NCBI RefSeq assembly: GCF_029338395.1
Contig: NZ_CP119809.1
Coordinates: forward strand, 3,100,001 to 3,164,000
Origin: Halorussus caseinilyticus
GTDB lineage: Archaea; Halobacteriota; Halobacteria; Halobacteriales; Haladaptataceae
Direction: 5' to 3'
Length of the DNA stretch: 64,000 nt
In this document: positions 53,448 through 63,257 of the stretch, in pieces
How the letters are laid out: each line of letters starts with the position of its first letter
Position numbering within the stretch: position 1 is the stretch's first letter
The notes under the pieces: model-generated
Databases searched by the model: none
The model's input: the letters and a program-made list of their open reading frames with translations, nothing else
What the model was told of the DNA's origin: nothing
Program-made: the position numbers and the translations under genes

Positions 53448-54311
53448 TCAGACCTTCGCGTACTTGCCAGCCTTCAGGTAGACCTTCCAACTGAAGTCGC
53501 GGCCAGCGTACTCGGGGCGGCGCTCCTCGCAGGTGCCGTTGAACGCTTGGGTGCCCTCGTAGTCGCCAATCCACTGGACGGCGTACATGCCGTCGCTACC
53601 GACCGTGGTGTACTCGGGGTGGGGTCGAACTTTGTCCTGTCCGAGCGTGAAGTCGCCCTCGATGCTGACGCCGACGCCGCGGTAGGCGGCCGAGAGACCG
53701 ACGGTGTAGGTCTTGCCGTTTCGGGTCAGGTCTTGGTCCGGGTCGTAGGCGAGCATGTCGTAGCCGCTACCGAGACTGACGCGGTTCCACATGTTCCAGA
53801 GGTTCCCCGTGAAGTCCCAGTAGTCGCGGGACTGTCCCGAGGTCCAGTGCCAGTAGAAGTAGTGTTCGCGGTCGTACTCGTCCTTTACGTCGGACTTGTA
53901 GAGCGCGACCTGATTGTCGGACTCGGCGATGACCGTGCCGCCGTCGTCGGTGGCTTCGAGGTGTTCGGTCCACGCGTTGACGTAGGTCAGGTTGTCCATG
54001 TGGCCGGGCGTCGAGGCCTCCGTGGACAGGTCGCCGTCGTCCTGACTGCCCCAAACGCCTTGGTCGCCGTACTTCTCTCGCATGCGGGCCACGTAGTCAT
54101 CGTGTTCGGACTTCGAGAGACCCGGCGTGTCGGGACCGACGCTGATGGACGAACTCGCCGAGGCCGTCTCCTCGGGCTTGCCTTTCTTCTTCCCCTGCGC
54201 GCTAGCGACGCCCGAACCCAGCGCGAGGCTGGTGGAGGCGATACCGGCACGTTTCAGGAAAGTACGTCGCTTCTGGTTCGACTGTTGATTTTCTCGTGGC
54301 ATCTTTTCCAC
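53448..54311 (-). CDS. Tat-exported protein, paralogue of the gene at 54434
   Basis: 287 aa. Tat signal QKRRTFLKRAGIASTSLALG with an AXA-type cleavage site (ASA, about residues 36-38), then a Lys-rich GKKKGKPEE. The mature part is not recognised. Shared with the neighbour: YVARMREKYGDQGVWG, a central AWTEHLEA, DNQVALYKSDVKDEYDREHYFYWHW, and end YAVQWIGDYEGTQAFNGTCEER. Secreted or cell-surface; no metal or catalytic motif is obvious. Confidence 0.8.
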   Translation of the reverse strand: MEKMPRENQQSNQKRRTFLKRAGIASTSLALGSGVASAQGKKKGKPEETASASSSISVGPDTPGLSKSEHDDYVARMREKYGDQGVWGSQDDGDLSTEASTPGHMDNLTYVNAWTEHLEATDDGGTVIAESDNQVALYKSDVKDEYDREHYFYWHWTSGQSRDYWDFTGNLWNMWNRVSLGSGYDMLAYDPDQDLTRNGKTYTVGLSAAYRGVGVSIEGDFTLGQDKVRPHPEYTTVGSDGMYAVQWIGDYEGTQAFNGTCEERRPEYAGRDFSWKVYLKAGKYAKV

Positions 54312-54433
54312 ATTAATTCGCTGAATGCTCCATATTATTAATGCTACTTCATGATGAAATTACTCAGCGGATGAACGGTTCTCGGGTTCCGAAAAATTTC
54401 CCACCCTCCGGCTAATCCCCCGCACCGCGAGAC

Positions 54434-55303
54434 CTACGACAGGCGAGACTTGCCGCCCTCGATTTCCGCGTCCCAGACGAAACTGAACGTCTCGTCGGGA
54501 CGCCACCGCGCCTCGCAGACGCCGATGACGGCTTGGGTCTCACTGACCTCTCCCGACCACCGAATCGCGTACTGCCCTTCCTCGCCGACGCGCGTCTCCG
54601 AAGCGACCGGTTCGACGCTCCCGCCGCGGAGCGGATACGACGACTCGAACTCGGGCGTGTTCGGCGAGGGCGAGGAGAACGGAACCGAACTGCTGTCGTG
54701 GCGACTGCTCGGCGAGTACAGGAGCAAGTCCTCGGTGTGAACGTCGAGTTCGACCCCGGTCTGTAGTCGTCGGAACACCGGCGTGCCGTCGAGTACGTTC
54801 CCGCCTCGCTTCCACTCGGGGACCCGGCCAGCGCTCCAGAGCAGTATCAGGAAGTGTTGGTTGCCGTTCTCGTCTACTTTGTCCGGAATCTCGTAGAGGA
54901 CGAGTGCGTTGTCCGCGGCCACGAGGAGGTTGTCCTTCTCGCCGCCGTACGGTTGTCCGTTCTCGGTGACGTGGAGTTGCTTCGTCCACGCCCGTCGGAA
55001 GTCGAGCGTCTGGCCGATTTTTCGCCCTGCCGTCCCGTACGGACCGCTATCGCCGTAGCGTTCCTGCATCCGCCCGACGTACTCGTCGAACTCCTCGGCG
55101 GCGAGTCCGGACGTTCCTTCCTGAATCGGCGTGGTGGCGTGACCCACCGACGACGATTCGAGGGCGTCGAGACACCCTGCGGTTGCGACCAACGAACCAG
55201 TCGCACCGAGTTGGGCGGCCCGCCGCAAGTAGTTTCGTCGCGTCGAGCGATACTCGTGGGAGGATTGGGAGGAACTTCGACTGCGCTCGTCTCGAGGGAC
55301 CAT
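54434..55303 (-). CDS. Tat-exported lipoprotein, paralogue of the gene at 53448
   Basis: 289 aa from the ATG at 55303. Twin arginine in YRSTRRNYLRRAA and lipobox VATAGC. Shared blocks: EFDEYVGRMQERYGDSGPYG, RAWTKQLHV, DNALVLYEIPDKVDENGNQHF, and GQYAIRWSGEVSETQAVIGVCEARW. The paralogue is soluble (no lipobox) while this one is anchored. Family function unknown; the two plus the next gene form a minus-strand cluster. Confidence 0.8.
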   Translation of the reverse strand: MVPRDERSRSSSQSSHEYRSTRRNYLRRAAQLGATGSLVATAGCLDALESSSVGHATTPIQEGTSGLAAEEFDEYVGRMQERYGDSGPYGTAGRKIGQTLDFRRAWTKQLHVTENGQPYGGEKDNLLVAADNALVLYEIPDKVDENGNQHFLILLWSAGRVPEWKRGGNVLDGTPVFRRLQTGVELDVHTEDLLLYSPSSRHDSSSVPFSSPSPNTPEFESSYPLRGGSVEPVASETRVGEEGQYAIRWSGEVSETQAVIGVCEARWRPDETFSFVWDAEIEGGKSRLS

Positions 55304-55424
55304 ACCTTCGAATTCCAACTAAATCACTAAAGCTCTCTGCTGTGAAATTCGCAATACCCGGCCGAATCCCCACCCTCCGGCAAATCGCTCACGTTCCGAA
55401 CCCCCCGTCTCACTTCGAACGCGT

Positions 55425-56240
55425 TCACGTACCGTCGCACTGGGTCTCGTCCCGACGCGCCTCGTCTCGATACGTCTCGTAGTGGTCGGTCGCCCACTCC
55501 ACGGCGTCCGGCGATTCGTTCAGGATGACGCCGCGGATTCCCCCCCGTTCGTGAACGGTGACGCCAGCGTATCGCTCGTCGTCGGTGTCTATCAACCACA
55601 GGGTGAACGGCAGTTCGGCCTCCGAGGTGTGAACCCGGACCTCGCTAGCGGTTTCGAGACCACGATTCGCCGACCAGTACGGGTCGTCGAACGCCCCGAG
55701 AATCTCGTCTTCCACGACGAGTTCGACTTCGAGGCAGTTCTCCTCCACGAACGTTTCGAGGATGTCGAGATACGTGGTCAACACCACCGGCATCAGAACT
55801 CGCACTTTCGAGGCGGACTTCAGGACGTTCACAATCGGCGTGAGGGCGTTCTCCGGCGTGTGAGAGTCCGCGACGTGAACCTCGGCGTCCCGGATGACGG
55901 CGGGCGATATTGGGGAGTCGTCGGGCCACACTTCGAGGAGCGGGATACCGTCCGTGAGCGTCTCGGTGGTCTTGACGTAGTTTTGAAACTCGGAGAACGC
56001 GATTTTCCCGCTCGTCGTGGGGTGGTACGTGCTACCGATTCGCTCGACGGTCTCGACCTCTTCCAGCTCCCGTATCGCACGGTCGATGGTCGAACGCGAG
56101 GCAGTGAGTCGGTCAACTAACTCCGGTTTCGTCATCGGTTCTTCGAGAAGCACCGCGAGAACGTCGTGTCGCTTCGCCACGGCTTCCCGGAGACCCTCGG
56201 GACTAACAGACGTTTTTCGGGTCGTGTCTAGTCCGCCCAT
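55425..56240 (-). CDS. Winged-helix regulator with FilR1-type domain
   Basis: 271 aa. N-terminal winged HTH (VLAVLLEEPMTKPELVDRLTASRSTIDRAIREL) joined to a C-terminal ligand-like domain with VLMPVVLTTYLDILETFV and LPFTLWLIDTDDERYAGVTVHERGGIRGVILN, as in haloarchaeal/methanogen FilR1 (DUF1724) regulators. It lies upstream of the two exported paralogues on the same strand, and may control them. AT-rich DNA upstream (56250-56315) likely holds its promoter. Confidence 0.85.
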   Translation of the reverse strand: MGGLDTTRKTSVSPEGLREAVAKRHDVLAVLLEEPMTKPELVDRLTASRSTIDRAIRELEEVETVERIGSTYHPTTSGKIAFSEFQNYVKTTETLTDGIPLLEVWPDDSPISPAVIRDAEVHVADSHTPENALTPIVNVLKSASKVRVLMPVVLTTYLDILETFVEENCLEVELVVEDEILGAFDDPYWSANRGLETASEVRVHTSEAELPFTLWLIDTDDERYAGVTVHERGGIRGVILNESPDAVEWATDHYETYRDEARRDETQCDGT

Positions 56241-59341: not shown

Positions 59342-60133
59342 ATGAGACGTGATTCGACCACGAGCGACGAGCCAAAGCGACGAACTGTCCTCCAGTCCGT
59401 TAGCGATTCGCCGGAAAGCCAGAAGCGCCGCGGCTTCCTCAGAAACGCGCTCGGTGCCTTCGTCGGTAGCGTCGGTGCCGCGTTCGGATTCTCGACTCGG
59501 ACCTCGGCGATGACGCCCCAAGAGAAACGTGCGGCGAAGGCGGCGGCCAAGGAGTACAACTCCACCGAGGCGATTCGTGGTGTCGTCCAGTCGTACGCCA
59601 CCGACCTCCTCCGTCACGTCGCCAGCGAGGGCCACATCGACCGACCCGCGGTTTCGGCACTTCCGATAGAGAAGATACACCATTCCGTCGAGTCGTACAC
59701 TCACGCCGACGAAGGCGTCATCATCGACGCGAGTGCTACCGAGGACGGAGTACGCGTGAAAATCCAAGTGAAACGCCAACTCGCCGACGGGCGCGAGTTC
59801 CTCCTCGTCGTCAACCCGACGGCGGAACGGAGTCAGGCGATTTTCCGGGAACCCGAACCCGAAGTCACGCTGACCGACTCCACGGGAACCGACTCGAAGC
59901 AGACGGATGTCTACTACACGGCCACGGCGGACGGGAACGGCGGAATGACGATTCAGAACTGTAGTGATGCGTGTGGCGAGGTGTACGACCGTACAGTGTG
60001 TAGCACTACCTGTGGTCCGTACAGTTGTGGTTGTGTGAAGTACGGCATTCACACGTCCTGCACGGACCCCAGTTGCGACGGTTGCTACACTATCGACTAC
60101 TCGTGCTGTGGCGACTACAACTGCGACCTGTAG
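59342..60133 (+). CDS. Tat-exported precursor with 12-Cys C-terminal domain; candidate halocin-C8-like bacteriocin
   Basis: 263 aa. Tat signal KRRGFLRNALGAFVGSVGAAF (Arg29-Arg30) with a likely cleavage after TRTSA (residue 56). Residues 57-206 have no cysteine and look like a soluble propeptide with a mixed alpha/beta fold (VVQSYATDLLRHV, GVRVKIQVKRQLADGREF). Residues 207-261 hold twelve cysteines (207, 211, 220, 224, 229, 231, 240, 245, 248, 255, 256, 261) in 55 residues, rich in Gly, Tyr and Thr. This size, the Tat signal and the cysteine-rich tail match halocin C8 precursors (ProC8: N-terminal immunity part plus 76-aa, 10-Cys toxin). The sequence itself is not obviously homologous. A zinc-binding or redox role is the alternative. 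Confidence 0.8.
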   Translation: MRRDSTTSDEPKRRTVLQSVSDSPESQKRRGFLRNALGAFVGSVGAAFGFSTRTSAMTPQEKRAAKAAAKEYNSTEAIRGVVQSYATDLLRHVASEGHIDRPAVSALPIEKIHHSVESYTHADEGVIIDASATEDGVRVKIQVKRQLADGREFLLVVNPTAERSQAIFREPEPEVTLTDSTGTDSKQTDVYYTATADGNGGMTIQNCSDACGEVYDRTVCSTTCGPYSCGCVKYGIHTSCTDPSCDGCYTIDYSCCGDYNCDL

Positions 60134-60365: not shown

Positions 60366-63257
60366 ATGAATGAAAAAGAGAACGAATCGGACGACACCGG
60401 AATCGACTCGGGGCGGCGTCGGTTCCTGAAGTACGCGGGCACCGGCGCGATTACCGGCGCGGCGGCGCTCGGCGAGGCGAGCGCCCGCGGCGACGGGAAG
60501 ACGCTCCCGCCGGGGTCCGGCGTGGACGAGGGTCTCTCGGTCGCCAACGTCGGCATCGACAACGGCACCTACCGCATCGAACTCGGCGAGACCGAGACCG
60601 GCACCCGCGACTGGTTCGTCGGCGAGAAGCGCACGCTCTACCACGAGTTCTTCGCGCTTCAGGACGGGACCGGGAGCGTCGTCCCGTCGTACAATCCGAA
60701 GACCGTCGTGGACTCGTTCCCCTCCGGCGGCGACCCCGGCACGACCTACTCGGCGACCATCCGGTACGCCGTCGGGTCCACCACGCTCGAAGTCGTCCGG
60801 AAGGTGACCCTCGCGCCCGACCAGACCAAATTCACCGTCACCTACGAAGTCACCAACGTCGGGTCGGCGTCGGTCGGGGACCTCCGCCTCTACCAGTACT
60901 GCGACTACGACGTGGCGTACTCGATGACCGACCAAGCGCGCTACCACTCCTCGGCCGAGATGCCCTACGTCCGGGACACCGGCGACGGTCTGGACCTCTA
61001 CACCGGATTCACCGGCGAGTCGGCCCCCGACCACCACCACGTCAGCGTCTACTACAACCCGCTCCAGCGCCCGGCATTCGCCTACGACGCGGTGCTGAAC
61101 GGGTCGCTCAACGACGCCACCGCCGCGCCCGACAGCGGTGGCGACGACGCGGTGGTCGCCGCCCAGTGGTCGCTCGGGTCGCTCGCACCCGGCGACACCA
61201 CCAGTTACACCCTCACGTTCGGCGCGGCCGAGACTCGGAGCGCCCTCGCGGACCTCATCGGAAACGGCACCGCGACCCAAGGCGTCGAACTCGGCGACCC
61301 GACCGTGGACCGCTTCCAGATTCGACCCCTCGACCAACTCCCGCTCGAGTTCTCCGTCTCCATCTCCGGTGTCAGCGACGACGTGACCCTCGAATTCCGG
61401 AATTCGAGTTCCTACGCCGACCTACTCCACGACTCGAAGACCGTGAGTCCCGACGCCGAGACGGTCACCAACCGCCTCGACATCGCCGGACCAGACCACG
61501 ACAAGATTCGGGGTGACATCATCGACCCCGAGGGCGCGGGCCGACTCCCTACCGACGGTCCCCTCTCGGTCACGGTGACGGCCTACGACAGTTCGGGGAG
61601 CGAACTCGACACGTTCGACCTCACGCTCAACAACCTCGAAGGGCCGAACTACGTCGAGTACCCCGACTTCAGCCGTCAGACCGGGATTCCGCTCGGCGGT
61701 CGGGACCGCTTCTACCTCGACGGCGACGACTACTACCACAACCACCAGTCGCTCCTCGTCCGGGAGTGGGCGCTCCGCGCCGCCGCGAACGGCGGCGACA
61801 CCAGTCGCGCCAGCGACCTGCCGCTCCCCGAGGACCCCGAAATCGCCGCGAACCGGGCGTGGCGCTTCGTCAAGATGTCGCTGTCGCCCGACGGCGAACC
61901 CGACGAGTTCACTCGCGACATCAACCTCGCGCGCTGGATAGACAAGAAGTTCCTCGGACCCGACCGGTCGTACCTCCCGCTGTCGGTCTACTCCTACCAG
62001 AACGGCCACATCTGCATCGAACACACCTACCTCTTCTCGTCGTTCACCCGGACGCTCGGCCTGCCGACCCGCGAGATGACCGCCGCCCTCGCCGCGCCCG
62101 GCGGGGCCTACGGTTACGACAGTTACACCTCGTGGTATCAGGAGTCGGCCGCGCAGGTGTTCTACGAGGGCCGGTGGAACTTCTACGACCTCTACATTTT
62201 CGGGGAGGGCGCGCGCGACCCCAGTCGCTACCTCGACGGCTACACCGGGTACAAGCTCTGGGAGACCAACTACCGGGTCCAAGAGACCACGATGCCCGAC
62301 GGGACGACTCGCTGGGGTCACGACTTCGGCATCGACTACGAGGGCGACCCCCGGACGCCCTCCCAGTGGGACTTCAACAGTTCGGTGCGCCGGTCCGGAC
62401 TCCTCGTCGCCAACTACTCGCCGGTCGAGATGGACGCCACCGACGCCGACGGCCGAGGCATCGACGCCACCCTCTCGGACGGACCCGGAACCGAGGTGAG
62501 CGAGACCGACCCCGAGACCGACATTCCGGGGTCGGTCCACGTCCCGAAGGGTTCGACCGGGTTCACCGACGCCGCCGACCCCGAGAGCGTCTACGACCTC
62601 CGCGAGAGCCTCTTCGTCCCCGACGGGGCCGAGTCGGGGTCGCTCACCCTCGACTACGAGGGTACCGACGACGGCGAGTACACCACCGTCCTCGCGCAGG
62701 TCTCCGAGAGCGACGACGGCGAGTTGGAAGTCGAGACCGAGACCGAACTTACGCTGGAAGTCACCGAGGGCGAGAGCCAACAACTCGAACTCGAACGCTC
62801 CTCGGGCGGAAGCGGCGACGGCGGCAGTTCCGATGGGTTCACCATCCGGAAGATTCCCGCCTCCATCGACATCGACCCCGACGCCATCAACCCGAGAGCG
62901 AAGGGGAAGTGGGTCACTGCCTACGTCGAACTCGGCGACAACAGTCTCGGCGTCGAAGTCTCCGACATCGCACTCGACACCGTGACGATGAACGGCGTCC
63001 CGGCAGTCACCGACCGGAAGTACGGGTTCGTGAAGAACCCGCCAATCGAGGACCGCGACGGCGACGGCTTCCCCGAACTCGCGGTGAAGTTCCCGCGGAG
63101 TGCGGTCGCCGCGACCCTCGACTCGGGCGGGAAAGCCGAAATCACCGTCTCGGGCGAAGTCGGCGACGTGACCTTCGAGGGGAGCGATTCGGTTCGCGTC
63201 GTGGGTGGCGGGAAGGGTCGCGGGAAGGGCGGTCGCGGCGGAAAGGGAGGGAAATGA
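60366..63257 (+). CDS. Large Tat-exported protein with transglutaminase-like core and Gly/Lys-rich tail
   Basis: 963 aa. Tat signal GRRRFLKYAGTGAITGAAALG near residues 17-37. Residues about 50-330 form beta-rich domains (VTYEVTNVGSASVGDL). Around 535-620 lies a transglutaminase-like pattern: GHICIEHTYLFSSF (Cys550), RTLGLPTRE, then EGRWNFYDLY (Asp608); the expected catalytic His is replaced (Glu593 region, ESAAQVF). A C-terminal domain with IPASIDIDPDAINPRAKGK is shared with other archaeal surface proteins. The last 17 residues are GGGKGRGKGGRGGKGGK, very basic for a haloarchaeon. Perhaps a cell-envelope protein or an inactive enzyme. Confidence 0.78.
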   Translation: MNEKENESDDTGIDSGRRRFLKYAGTGAITGAAALGEASARGDGKTLPPGSGVDEGLSVANVGIDNGTYRIELGETETGTRDWFVGEKRTLYHEFFALQDGTGSVVPSYNPKTVVDSFPSGGDPGTTYSATIRYAVGSTTLEVVRKVTLAPDQTKFTVTYEVTNVGSASVGDLRLYQYCDYDVAYSMTDQARYHSSAEMPYVRDTGDGLDLYTGFTGESAPDHHHVSVYYNPLQRPAFAYDAVLNGSLNDATAAPDSGGDDAVVAAQWSLGSLAPGDTTSYTLTFGAAETRSALADLIGNGTATQGVELGDPTVDRFQIRPLDQLPLEFSVSISGVSDDVTLEFRNSSSYADLLHDSKTVSPDAETVTNRLDIAGPDHDKIRGDIIDPEGAGRLPTDGPLSVTVTAYDSSGSELDTFDLTLNNLEGPNYVEYPDFSRQTGIPLGGRDRFYLDGDDYYHNHQSLLVREWALRAAANGGDTSRASDLPLPEDPEIAANRAWRFVKMSLSPDGEPDEFTRDINLARWIDKKFLGPDRSYLPLSVYSYQNGHICIEHTYLFSSFTRTLGLPTREMTAALAAPGGAYGYDSYTSWYQESAAQVFYEGRWNFYDLYIFGEGARDPSRYLDGYTGYKLWETNYRVQETTMPDGTTRWGHDFGIDYEGDPRTPSQWDFNSSVRRSGLLVANYSPVEMDATDADGRGIDATLSDGPGTEVSETDPETDIPGSVHVPKGSTGFTDAADPESVYDLRESLFVPDGAESGSLTLDYEGTDDGEYTTVLAQVSESDDGELEVETETELTLEVTEGESQQLELERSSGGSGDGGSSDGFTIRKIPASIDIDPDAINPRAKGKWVTAYVELGDNSLGVEVSDIALDTVTMNGVPAVTDRKYGFVKNPPIEDRDGDGFPELAVKFPRSAVAATLDSGGKAEITVSGEVGDVTFEGSDSVRVVGGGKGRGKGGRGGKGGK

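What the first reader, a model, noticed from the sequence alone, without database searches (positions are those of the whole stretch)
53448..56240. Paired soluble and lipid-anchored exported paralogues with a FilR1-type regulator
Seen: two adjacent Tat proteins share four blocks, one with a lipobox and one without; a winged-helix/FilR1-type gene precedes them. The fold is unrecognised. Inference: an undescribed secreted system, for example adhesion, sensing or toxin-immunity by paired forms.
Basis: partly seen in the sequence, partly recalled or inferred. Interest (0 to 1): 0.5.

Follow-up and report, generated by a model that had tools for sequence, protein, structure and literature searches.

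The report
Secreted and anchored archaeal protein pair
Two neighbouring genes of a salt-loving archaeon make a freely secreted protein with a segment that looks able to enter membranes, and a membrane-anchored cousin in which that segment is altered; the same kind of pair recurs in a few other species and may be a membrane-attacking protein with its guard, which is not yet shown.

Summary
P0001 (53448-54302) and P0002 (54434-55303) are paralogous Tat proteins (28% identity, E 5e-25); only P0002 has a lipobox. A FilR1_middle/HVO_A0261_N regulator precedes them. No Pfam, NCBIfam, PHROGs or PADLOC family fits. Relatives occur across haloarchaea and in methanogens (one 50% identical to P0001).

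New here: the family splits at a well-supported branch into a soluble and a mostly lipid-anchored class. Soluble members carry a longer, proline-poor, alternating segment between two conserved strands: a combined criterion is met by 18 of 18 measured soluble and 3 of 51 anchored-class genes; six lipidated genes have it deleted. A lipobox occurs in 0 of 32 soluble-class and 52 of 57 other-class genes. All six full-length tandem pairs found join one of each. In our genome an 18-bp element stands before both genes and nowhere else exactly; the regulator is not conserved beside other pairs examined.

Best guess: a small beta-pore-forming protein (haemolysin/aerolysin-like) with an anchored paralogue as guard. 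Fold support is only suggestive (best Z 7.2, model pLDDT 65), and 13 of 20 soluble-type genomes show no clear anchored partner, so a non-lytic surface role is at least as likely.

The parts
53448..54302 (-). P0001: Tat-exported soluble member (284 aa from ATG 54302; GTG 54311 possible), RR at residues 12-13, no lipobox
53640..53720 (-). P0001 residues 195-221 (27 aa): proline-free alternating segment, proposed membrane-inserting hairpin
   Evidence: modelled with pLDDT under 50
54434..55303 (-). P0002: Tat lipoprotein paralogue (289 aa), RR at 22-23, lipobox TAGC with C44
54626..54691 (-). P0002 residues 205-226 (22 aa): stretch with five prolines at the place of the P0001 segment
55425..56240 (-). 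P0003: winged-helix regulator with HVO_A0261_N and FilR1_middle domains
   Evidence: not conserved beside other pairs examined
54400..54417 (-). 18-bp element GATTAGCCGGAGGGTGGG, starting 115 bp before the P0001 ATG
55369..55386 (-). 18-bp element GATTTGCCGGAGGGTGGG, starting 83 bp before the P0002 ATG; with the other copy the only exact matches in the 4.39-Mb genome

Best explanation
P0001 is a small secreted protein that binds a neighbouring cell, assembles into a ring and pushes its alternating segment (residues 195-221) into the membrane as a beta-hairpin, working like the haemolysin or aerolysin beta-pore formers. P0002 is its paralogue with that segment replaced by a proline-rich stretch, held on the producer's outer face by a lipid; it would co-assemble with P0001 or capture it and so stop insertion in the producer. 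Shown at sequence level: export signals, paralogy, the class difference in the segment, and tandem pairing of the two classes in some genomes. Inferred: fold class, pore formation, target and the guarding role.
For: (1) The segment between two conserved strands has 24-33 residues (median 28) and 0-2 prolines in 18 of 18 soluble-clade genes measured, against a median of 22 residues in 51 anchored-class genes; the combined criterion (24 or more residues, at most 2 prolines, alternation p<=0.06 against shuffles) is met by 18 of 18 and 3 of 51 (no correction for relatedness). (2) It is deleted to one residue in six lipidated genes; five of them lie inside the soluble clade in the tree, and the sixth (L124) groups with one of these five in the tree. 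(3) Lipobox: 0 of 32 soluble-class genes, 52 of 57 other-class genes. (4) Six of six full-length tandem pairs in 83 regions are heterotypic; in one more genome a decayed soluble remnant lies beside an intact lipoprotein. (5) For G123, G403 and G407 the soluble and the anchored partners branch in the same order, with moderate support at the outer forks (94/75 and 86/52). (6) Foldseek's hits 1, 2, 4, 5 and 6 in the PDB for the P0001 model are haemolysin-family toxins (E 6.5e-3 to 2.1e-2); in VIA-align the first 22 and 47 of 50 rows are (best Z 7.2; five of the 47 rows carry only an inhibitor title and are taken as leukocidins from recall). (7) A survey defines the aerolysin core as two strands, an insertion hairpin of alternating residues, then two strands, and lists archaeal members (PMC3110756; passages and section 6).
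Against: Fold matches are weak: Z under 8, an unrelated enzyme (Alg17c) at Z 6.5, no Foldseek E <= 0.001 in the PDB, TM-scores of the five toxin rows only 0.14-0.30; model pLDDT is 64.7 and the segment itself is under 50. The second model, of a relative, was poor (pLDDT 45.4) and gave mixed hits, leukocidins at Z 4.4 and below among immunoglobulin and cadherin folds. No HMMER match to pore-former Pfam families for 10 members at E <= 10. The classes overlap in the segment: 11 of 51 anchored-class genes have 24 or more residues with at most two prolines, and 13 of 36 measurable ones alternate at p<0.05. 13 of 20 soluble-type genomes searched show no clear anchored member (one of them, G397, has an unclassified weak match), and the methanogens read have none in their regions. 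One methanogen tandem (G410) is homotypic: truncated soluble plus soluble. The soluble gene of the G132 pair has no clear start or Tat signal. Gene order in our genome is the reverse of the other five pairs.
Confidence: 0.3

Rival explanations
1. Non-lytic surface proteins: both forms are cell-envelope beta-rich proteins (matrix, adhesion or ligand binding). The soluble form uses the glycine-rich hairpin to self-assemble or dock on the S-layer; the anchored form is a membrane-bound version that does not need it.
For: Presence in haloarchaea and methanogens, recurring neighbourhoods within lineages beside housekeeping-like genes (output partly cut; gene names such as pyrG, purD, alaS and pheST recalled from protein starts), many single copies of either form, weak fold evidence for pores, overlap of the segment between classes.
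Against: Does not predict loss of the segment together with lipidation inside the soluble clade, nor the near-strict link between class and lipobox.
Confidence: 0.38
2. Two-component assembly: the anchored form is not a guard but a docking or nucleating subunit on the producer's surface that gathers the soluble form into a functional complex.
For: Heterotypic pairs with the same branching order in three genomes; the shared 18-bp element before both genes suggests co-regulation.
Against: 13 of 20 soluble-type genomes have no clear anchored member, and most anchored members in the regions read stand alone.
Confidence: 0.15
3. The pairing is only a tandem-duplication by-product: the paralogues have unrelated roles and sit together by chance or drift.
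For: Most members in the 83 regions are unpaired; the regulator is not shared; one methanogen tandem is homotypic.
Against: Five of six pairs join members of the two deep clades rather than recent duplicates, in more than one gene context; an 18-bp element is kept before both genes although the proteins are 28% identical.
Confidence: 0.14

Closest known systems
Haemolysin/leukocidin-type beta-pore-forming toxins
   Same: Best fold matches of the P0001 model; a stem-like alternating segment between core strands; bi-component toxins of this family use two different subunits (PMC9558359, passages).
   Different: No sequence-profile match, weak Z; one partner here is lipid-anchored with the segment altered; archaeal. 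That the segment is shorter than the toxin stem is recalled.
Aerolysin superfamily, including archaeal members listed in 2011
   Same: Strands, then an insertion hairpin of alternating residues, then strands; the survey counts three Euryarchaeota proteins, names Halogeometricum and Methanococcus entries and mentions Methanosarcinaceae (PMC3110756, passages and section 6).
   Different: No aerolysin Pfam match here; whether the listed archaeal proteins belong to this family could not be checked.
Halocins (H4, C8)
   Same: Exported haloarchaeal proteins acting on other haloarchaea; H4 is speculated to perforate the cell surface (PMC6759562, passages). That halocins use Tat is recalled.
   Different: No halocin H4 sequence could be obtained for comparison; no activity is known here.
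Pore-forming bacteriocins with immunity proteins
   Same: Toxin gene beside a protector located where the toxin acts (PMC9558359, passages).
   Different: Here the proposed protector is a paralogue of the toxin and is often absent.
FilR1/HVO_A0261-type regulators
   Same: P0003 carries both domains above the curated cut-offs.
   Different: Ligand and targets unknown; linkage to the pair was seen only in this genome.

Membership tests
Tat lipoprotein (P0002) | Twin-arginine signal plus lipobox cysteine | tested here: met
   RR22-23 and TAG-C44 in the sequence; a lipobox in 52 of 57 genes of its class. Lipidation itself not tested
Tat soluble export (P0001) | Twin-arginine signal without lipobox | tested here: met
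   RR12-13 in the sequence; the TAT_signal_seq profile scores 15.6 bits, just under its cut-off of 16.7. Export itself not tested
FilR1-type regulator (P0003) | FilR1_middle domain with N-terminal winged helix | tested here: met
   PF08350 88.4 bits and PF25213 61.2 bits, both above cut-off
Haemolysin/leukocidin superfamily | Significant match to a curated sequence profile | tested here: not met
   no leukocidin or haemolysin Pfam match for 10 members at E <= 10 or 41 members at E <= 0.1
Haemolysin/leukocidin superfamily | Same fold | tested here: inconclusive
   Z 7.2, rmsd 4.6, 153 residues aligned at best; model pLDDT 64.7; poor second model
Haemolysin/leukocidin superfamily | Internal alternating segment able to form a membrane hairpin | tested here: inconclusive
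   criterion met by 18 of 18 soluble and 3 of 51 anchored-class genes, but the segment is not modelled with confidence and insertion is untested
Aerolysin superfamily | Significant match to the aerolysin or ETX/MTX2 profile | tested here: not met
   no such match in 41 members at E <= 0.1, 10 members at E <= 10 or 3 methanogen members at E <= 1
Beta-pore-forming toxin in general | Oligomeric pore in a membrane | not testable with these tools
   needs protein experiments
Toxin-immunity pair | Protector gene beside toxin gene | tested here: inconclusive
   six heterotypic pairs, but 13 of 20 soluble-type genomes have no clear anchored member
Toxin-immunity pair | Neutralisation of the toxin by the partner | not testable with these tools
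   needs deletion and challenge experiments

The most novel reading that the evidence does not exclude
Halobacteriota own a home-grown family of small secreted beta-pore-forming proteins, and haloarchaea evolved a guard by copying the toxin, disabling or cutting out its membrane hairpin and tying the copy to the producer's own surface with a lipid, in one lineage a second time.
Probability: 0.23. Interest if true: 0.85.

Novelty: new variant of a known kind. Interest (0 to 1): 0.55.

Why it matters
Weapons used between archaea are few and best known as halocins (recalled). A pore-forming protein family shared by haloarchaea and methanogens, with a lipid-anchored, hairpin-altered paralogue as protector, would be a new self-protection design and would give a testable basis for haloarchaeal antagonism. 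Even if not a toxin, this is a wide, unnamed exported family with a clear two-class architecture.

Tried and rejected
Known-enzyme reading: no hit above a curated cut-off in Pfam or NCBIfam, none in PHROGs or PADLOC for P0001 and P0002, nothing convincing among PDB sequences. The strongest stray match outside the signal was Peptidase_M24 in one methanogen relative (E 0.002, 18.4 bits, cut-off 23). Rejected.

Virus or plasmid cargo: no relative in viral contigs (limited to two patterns each) or plasmids. A first scan of genome contigs found none; the second found three.

Regulator as part of the module: rejected as a general rule.

Counting the 391 of 391 hits as members: rejected, since the weak ones cover mainly the Tat signal. 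A signal-free core profile was used instead. The 48 of 391 also include a few signal-only hits.

A clean split of the segment between the classes: rejected on recount; lengths and proline counts overlap.

A small membrane protein downstream as protector: in two methanogen regions (L176, L177) and as a 60-aa ORF in 1 of 19 haloarchaeal soluble loci (L123); left open.

Shared upstream element in other pairs: no shared repeat in L033, L034 or L064; the 13-bp core occurs exactly in no fetched locus other than copies of our own.

Halocin H4 comparison: the gene could not be found. Viral fold library: low TM-scores only. A family absent from the VIA-align list is not excluded.

Full report
What is there. 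The minus strand carries, in order of reading, a regulator (P0003, 55425-56240), a Tat lipoprotein (P0002, 54434-55303) and a Tat soluble protein (P0001, 53448-54302). P0001 and P0002 are paralogues: 28% identity over 281 columns, E 5e-25. A search of the own genome with P0001 shows no third member. P0003 carries HVO_A0261_N and FilR1_middle domains.

No known family. P0001, P0002 and the relatives tested have no match above a curated cut-off in Pfam or NCBIfam; P0001, P0002 and one methanogen relative have none in PHROGs and PADLOC at E <= 0.1; PDB sequences give nothing convincing. Matches under the cut-offs are mostly to the Tat signal; the strongest other one is Peptidase_M24 in one methanogen relative (E 0.002). 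Literature searches for FilR1 in haloarchaea, halocins, haloarchaeal pore-formers, archaeal aerolysins and leukocidins, and lipobox secretomes did not show a description of this family in what I saw (listings; passages of PMC9558359, PMC6759562 and PMC12352652; passages and section 6 of PMC3110756; abstract and outline of PMC12893001). A search of print by sequence was not possible.

Distribution. A search with P0001 hit 48 of 391 Halobacteria genomes, a few by the Tat signal alone. A profile search hit 391 of 391, but the weak hits, by far the larger part, cover mainly the Tat signal and were not counted. A signal-free core profile found 77 ORF pieces in 69 fetched regions, window included; these regions were chosen because they were hits. 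In a draw of 392 genomes of the phylum, 24 matched, 13 of them outside the haloarchaeal order, four of these 13 only in part. Seven of the 13 were tested and all seven have methyl-coenzyme M reductase, so they are methanogens. Their proteins carry a signal without twin arginine, read by eye as Sec-like. One is 50% identical to P0001 over 241 columns; in the 59-row tree set it is the nearest row to P0001 (52%), while the best haloarchaeal row of the first set has 47%. No relative was found in plasmids or in two pattern-limited viral scans. Two relatives come from named genomes, Actinarchaeum halophilum and Natrialba asiatica, and one from a euryarchaeal MAG.

Two classes. A maximum-likelihood tree of 59 members splits at a branch with 100/99 support into a soluble clade (28 rows, five of them lipidated) and a mainly lipid-anchored clade (31 rows). 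For this tree 24 of 83 rows had been dropped as near-duplicates, long branches or incomplete. P0001 lies in the first clade and P0002 in the second. In the first tree (70 rows) the soluble clade had 99/99, and the clade around P0002 was weak at 60/91.

The segment. Between two conserved strands the soluble members carry 24-33 residues (median 28) with at most two prolines and alternating hydrophobic positions; P0001 has NGKTYTVGLSAAYRGVGVSIEGDFTLG. Against composition shuffles the alternation is at p<=0.06 in 18 of 18 genes measured and below 0.05 in 16. Two of the 18 (L057, L060) carry a stop or frameshift elsewhere, and the broken or partial genes L036, L106 and L108 were left out. In 51 anchored-class genes the median is 22 residues; the 36 with at least 20 residues have 1-7 prolines, none is proline-free, against 9 of 18 in the soluble class. 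It is deleted to one residue in six lipidated genes: L033_1110, L037, L041, L044 and L053, which lie inside the soluble clade, and L124, which groups with L053. The split is not clean: 11 of 51 anchored-class genes have 24 or more residues and at most two prolines, and 13 of 36 alternate at p<0.05. All three criteria together (alternation at p<=0.06) are met by 18 of 18 and 3 of 51. None of these counts is corrected for relatedness. With classes assigned by core profiles, a lipobox occurs in 0 of 32 soluble-class genes (34 stretches, two genes being split) and in 52 of 57 other-class genes (58 stretches, one gene split); five exceptions form one subgroup with a short segment. The profiles were trained on part of these genes, sorted by lipobox, so the count is not fully independent; the regions L145-L151 and L171-L177 were not in the training.

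Pairs. Of 83 regions read, six hold two full-length adjacent members: this window, G186 (Natrialba asiatica), G123, G132, G403 and G407. All six join one soluble and one anchored member on the same strand; the soluble gene of G132 lacks a clear start and Tat signal and may be decaying. In five of the six the partners come from the two deep clades; the sixth (G186) pairs a soluble gene with a lipidated gene of the soluble clade. Gene contexts differ: G123 and G403 lie in a pyrG-like region, the others elsewhere (gene names recalled from protein starts). In G396 a short soluble-type remnant lies beside an intact lipoprotein. A methanogen (G410) has a truncated soluble copy before an intact one, a homotypic case. 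For G123, G403 and G407 the soluble and the anchored partners branch in the same order; the outer forks have 94/75 and 86/52, and an unpaired lipoprotein (L046) also falls in the anchored group. In the other five pairs the soluble gene comes first, here the anchored one. Against obligate pairing, 13 of 20 soluble-type genomes searched show no clear anchored member; one of the 13 (G397) has an unclassified weak match.

Regulation. The 18-bp sequence GATTNGCCGGAGGGTGGG occurs exactly twice in the 4.39-Mb genome, 115 bp before P0001 and 83 bp before P0002; one further site has two mismatches. Its 13-bp core is in no fetched locus other than copies of our own. It may be an operator, a promoter element or a 3' element of the preceding gene; its function is not shown. 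P0003 has relatives at E <= 1e-20 in 26 of 28 genomes of the family, the own genome included; outside it none is above 36% identity, and in G407, G403 and G123 they lie on other contigs than the pairs.

Fold. The P0001 model from six sequences has pLDDT 64.7 and pTM 0.69, with the segment under 50. Foldseek against the PDB gives staphylococcal gamma-haemolysin and leukocidin and C. perfringens delta-toxin in five of the first six rows, E 6.5e-3 to 2.1e-2, none at 0.001, with TM-scores of 0.14-0.30. VIA-align lists haemolysin-family toxins in 47 of 50 rows and in the first 22, Z 7.2 at best; five of these rows are named only by an inhibitor title and are placed from recall. The other three rows are one enzyme (Alg17c, Z up to 6.5), and the tool warns that Z under 8 is common. 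A second model, of the Natrialba relative, was poor (pLDDT 45.4); its list mixes leukocidins (Z 4.4 and below) with immunoglobulin-like and cadherin folds. I read this as suggestive only.

Interpretation. The class difference in the segment, its loss together with lipidation inside the soluble clade, and the heterotypic pairs fit a membrane-inserting secreted protein whose anchored paralogue cannot insert and may block assembly on the producer. I put this at 0.30. A non-lytic surface role is somewhat more likely taken alone (0.38), because many soluble members have no clear anchored partner, the segment overlaps between classes, and the fold evidence is weak.

Noticed in passing
window 59342-60133 (+): Tat-like protein ending in a cysteine-rich tail of about 60 residues that recalls the halocin C8 precursor (from memory); no match in Pfam or NCBIfam at E <= 1 or PHROGs at E <= 0.1.
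   Followed up: partly
window 60366-63257 (+): Large Tat-like protein with weak transglutaminase-like and CARDB matches below cut-off.
   Followed up: no
L036 5988-7903: Soluble-type gene split by a 294-aa opposite-strand ORF that may be a transposase (guess by eye); a broken family gene in genome G005.
   Followed up: no
L176 5312-6549 and L177 4892-6110: In two methanogens a 79- and a 109-aa membrane protein, alike by eye, follow the family gene directly; a possible partner.
   Followed up: partly
L115, L116, L117, L120, L122: Subgroup of the anchored class without a lipobox cysteine and with only a 14- to 15-residue segment.
   Followed up: no
L147 7224-7382: Remnant of a soluble-type C-terminus directly upstream of an intact lipoprotein gene in genome G396.
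   Followed up: partly
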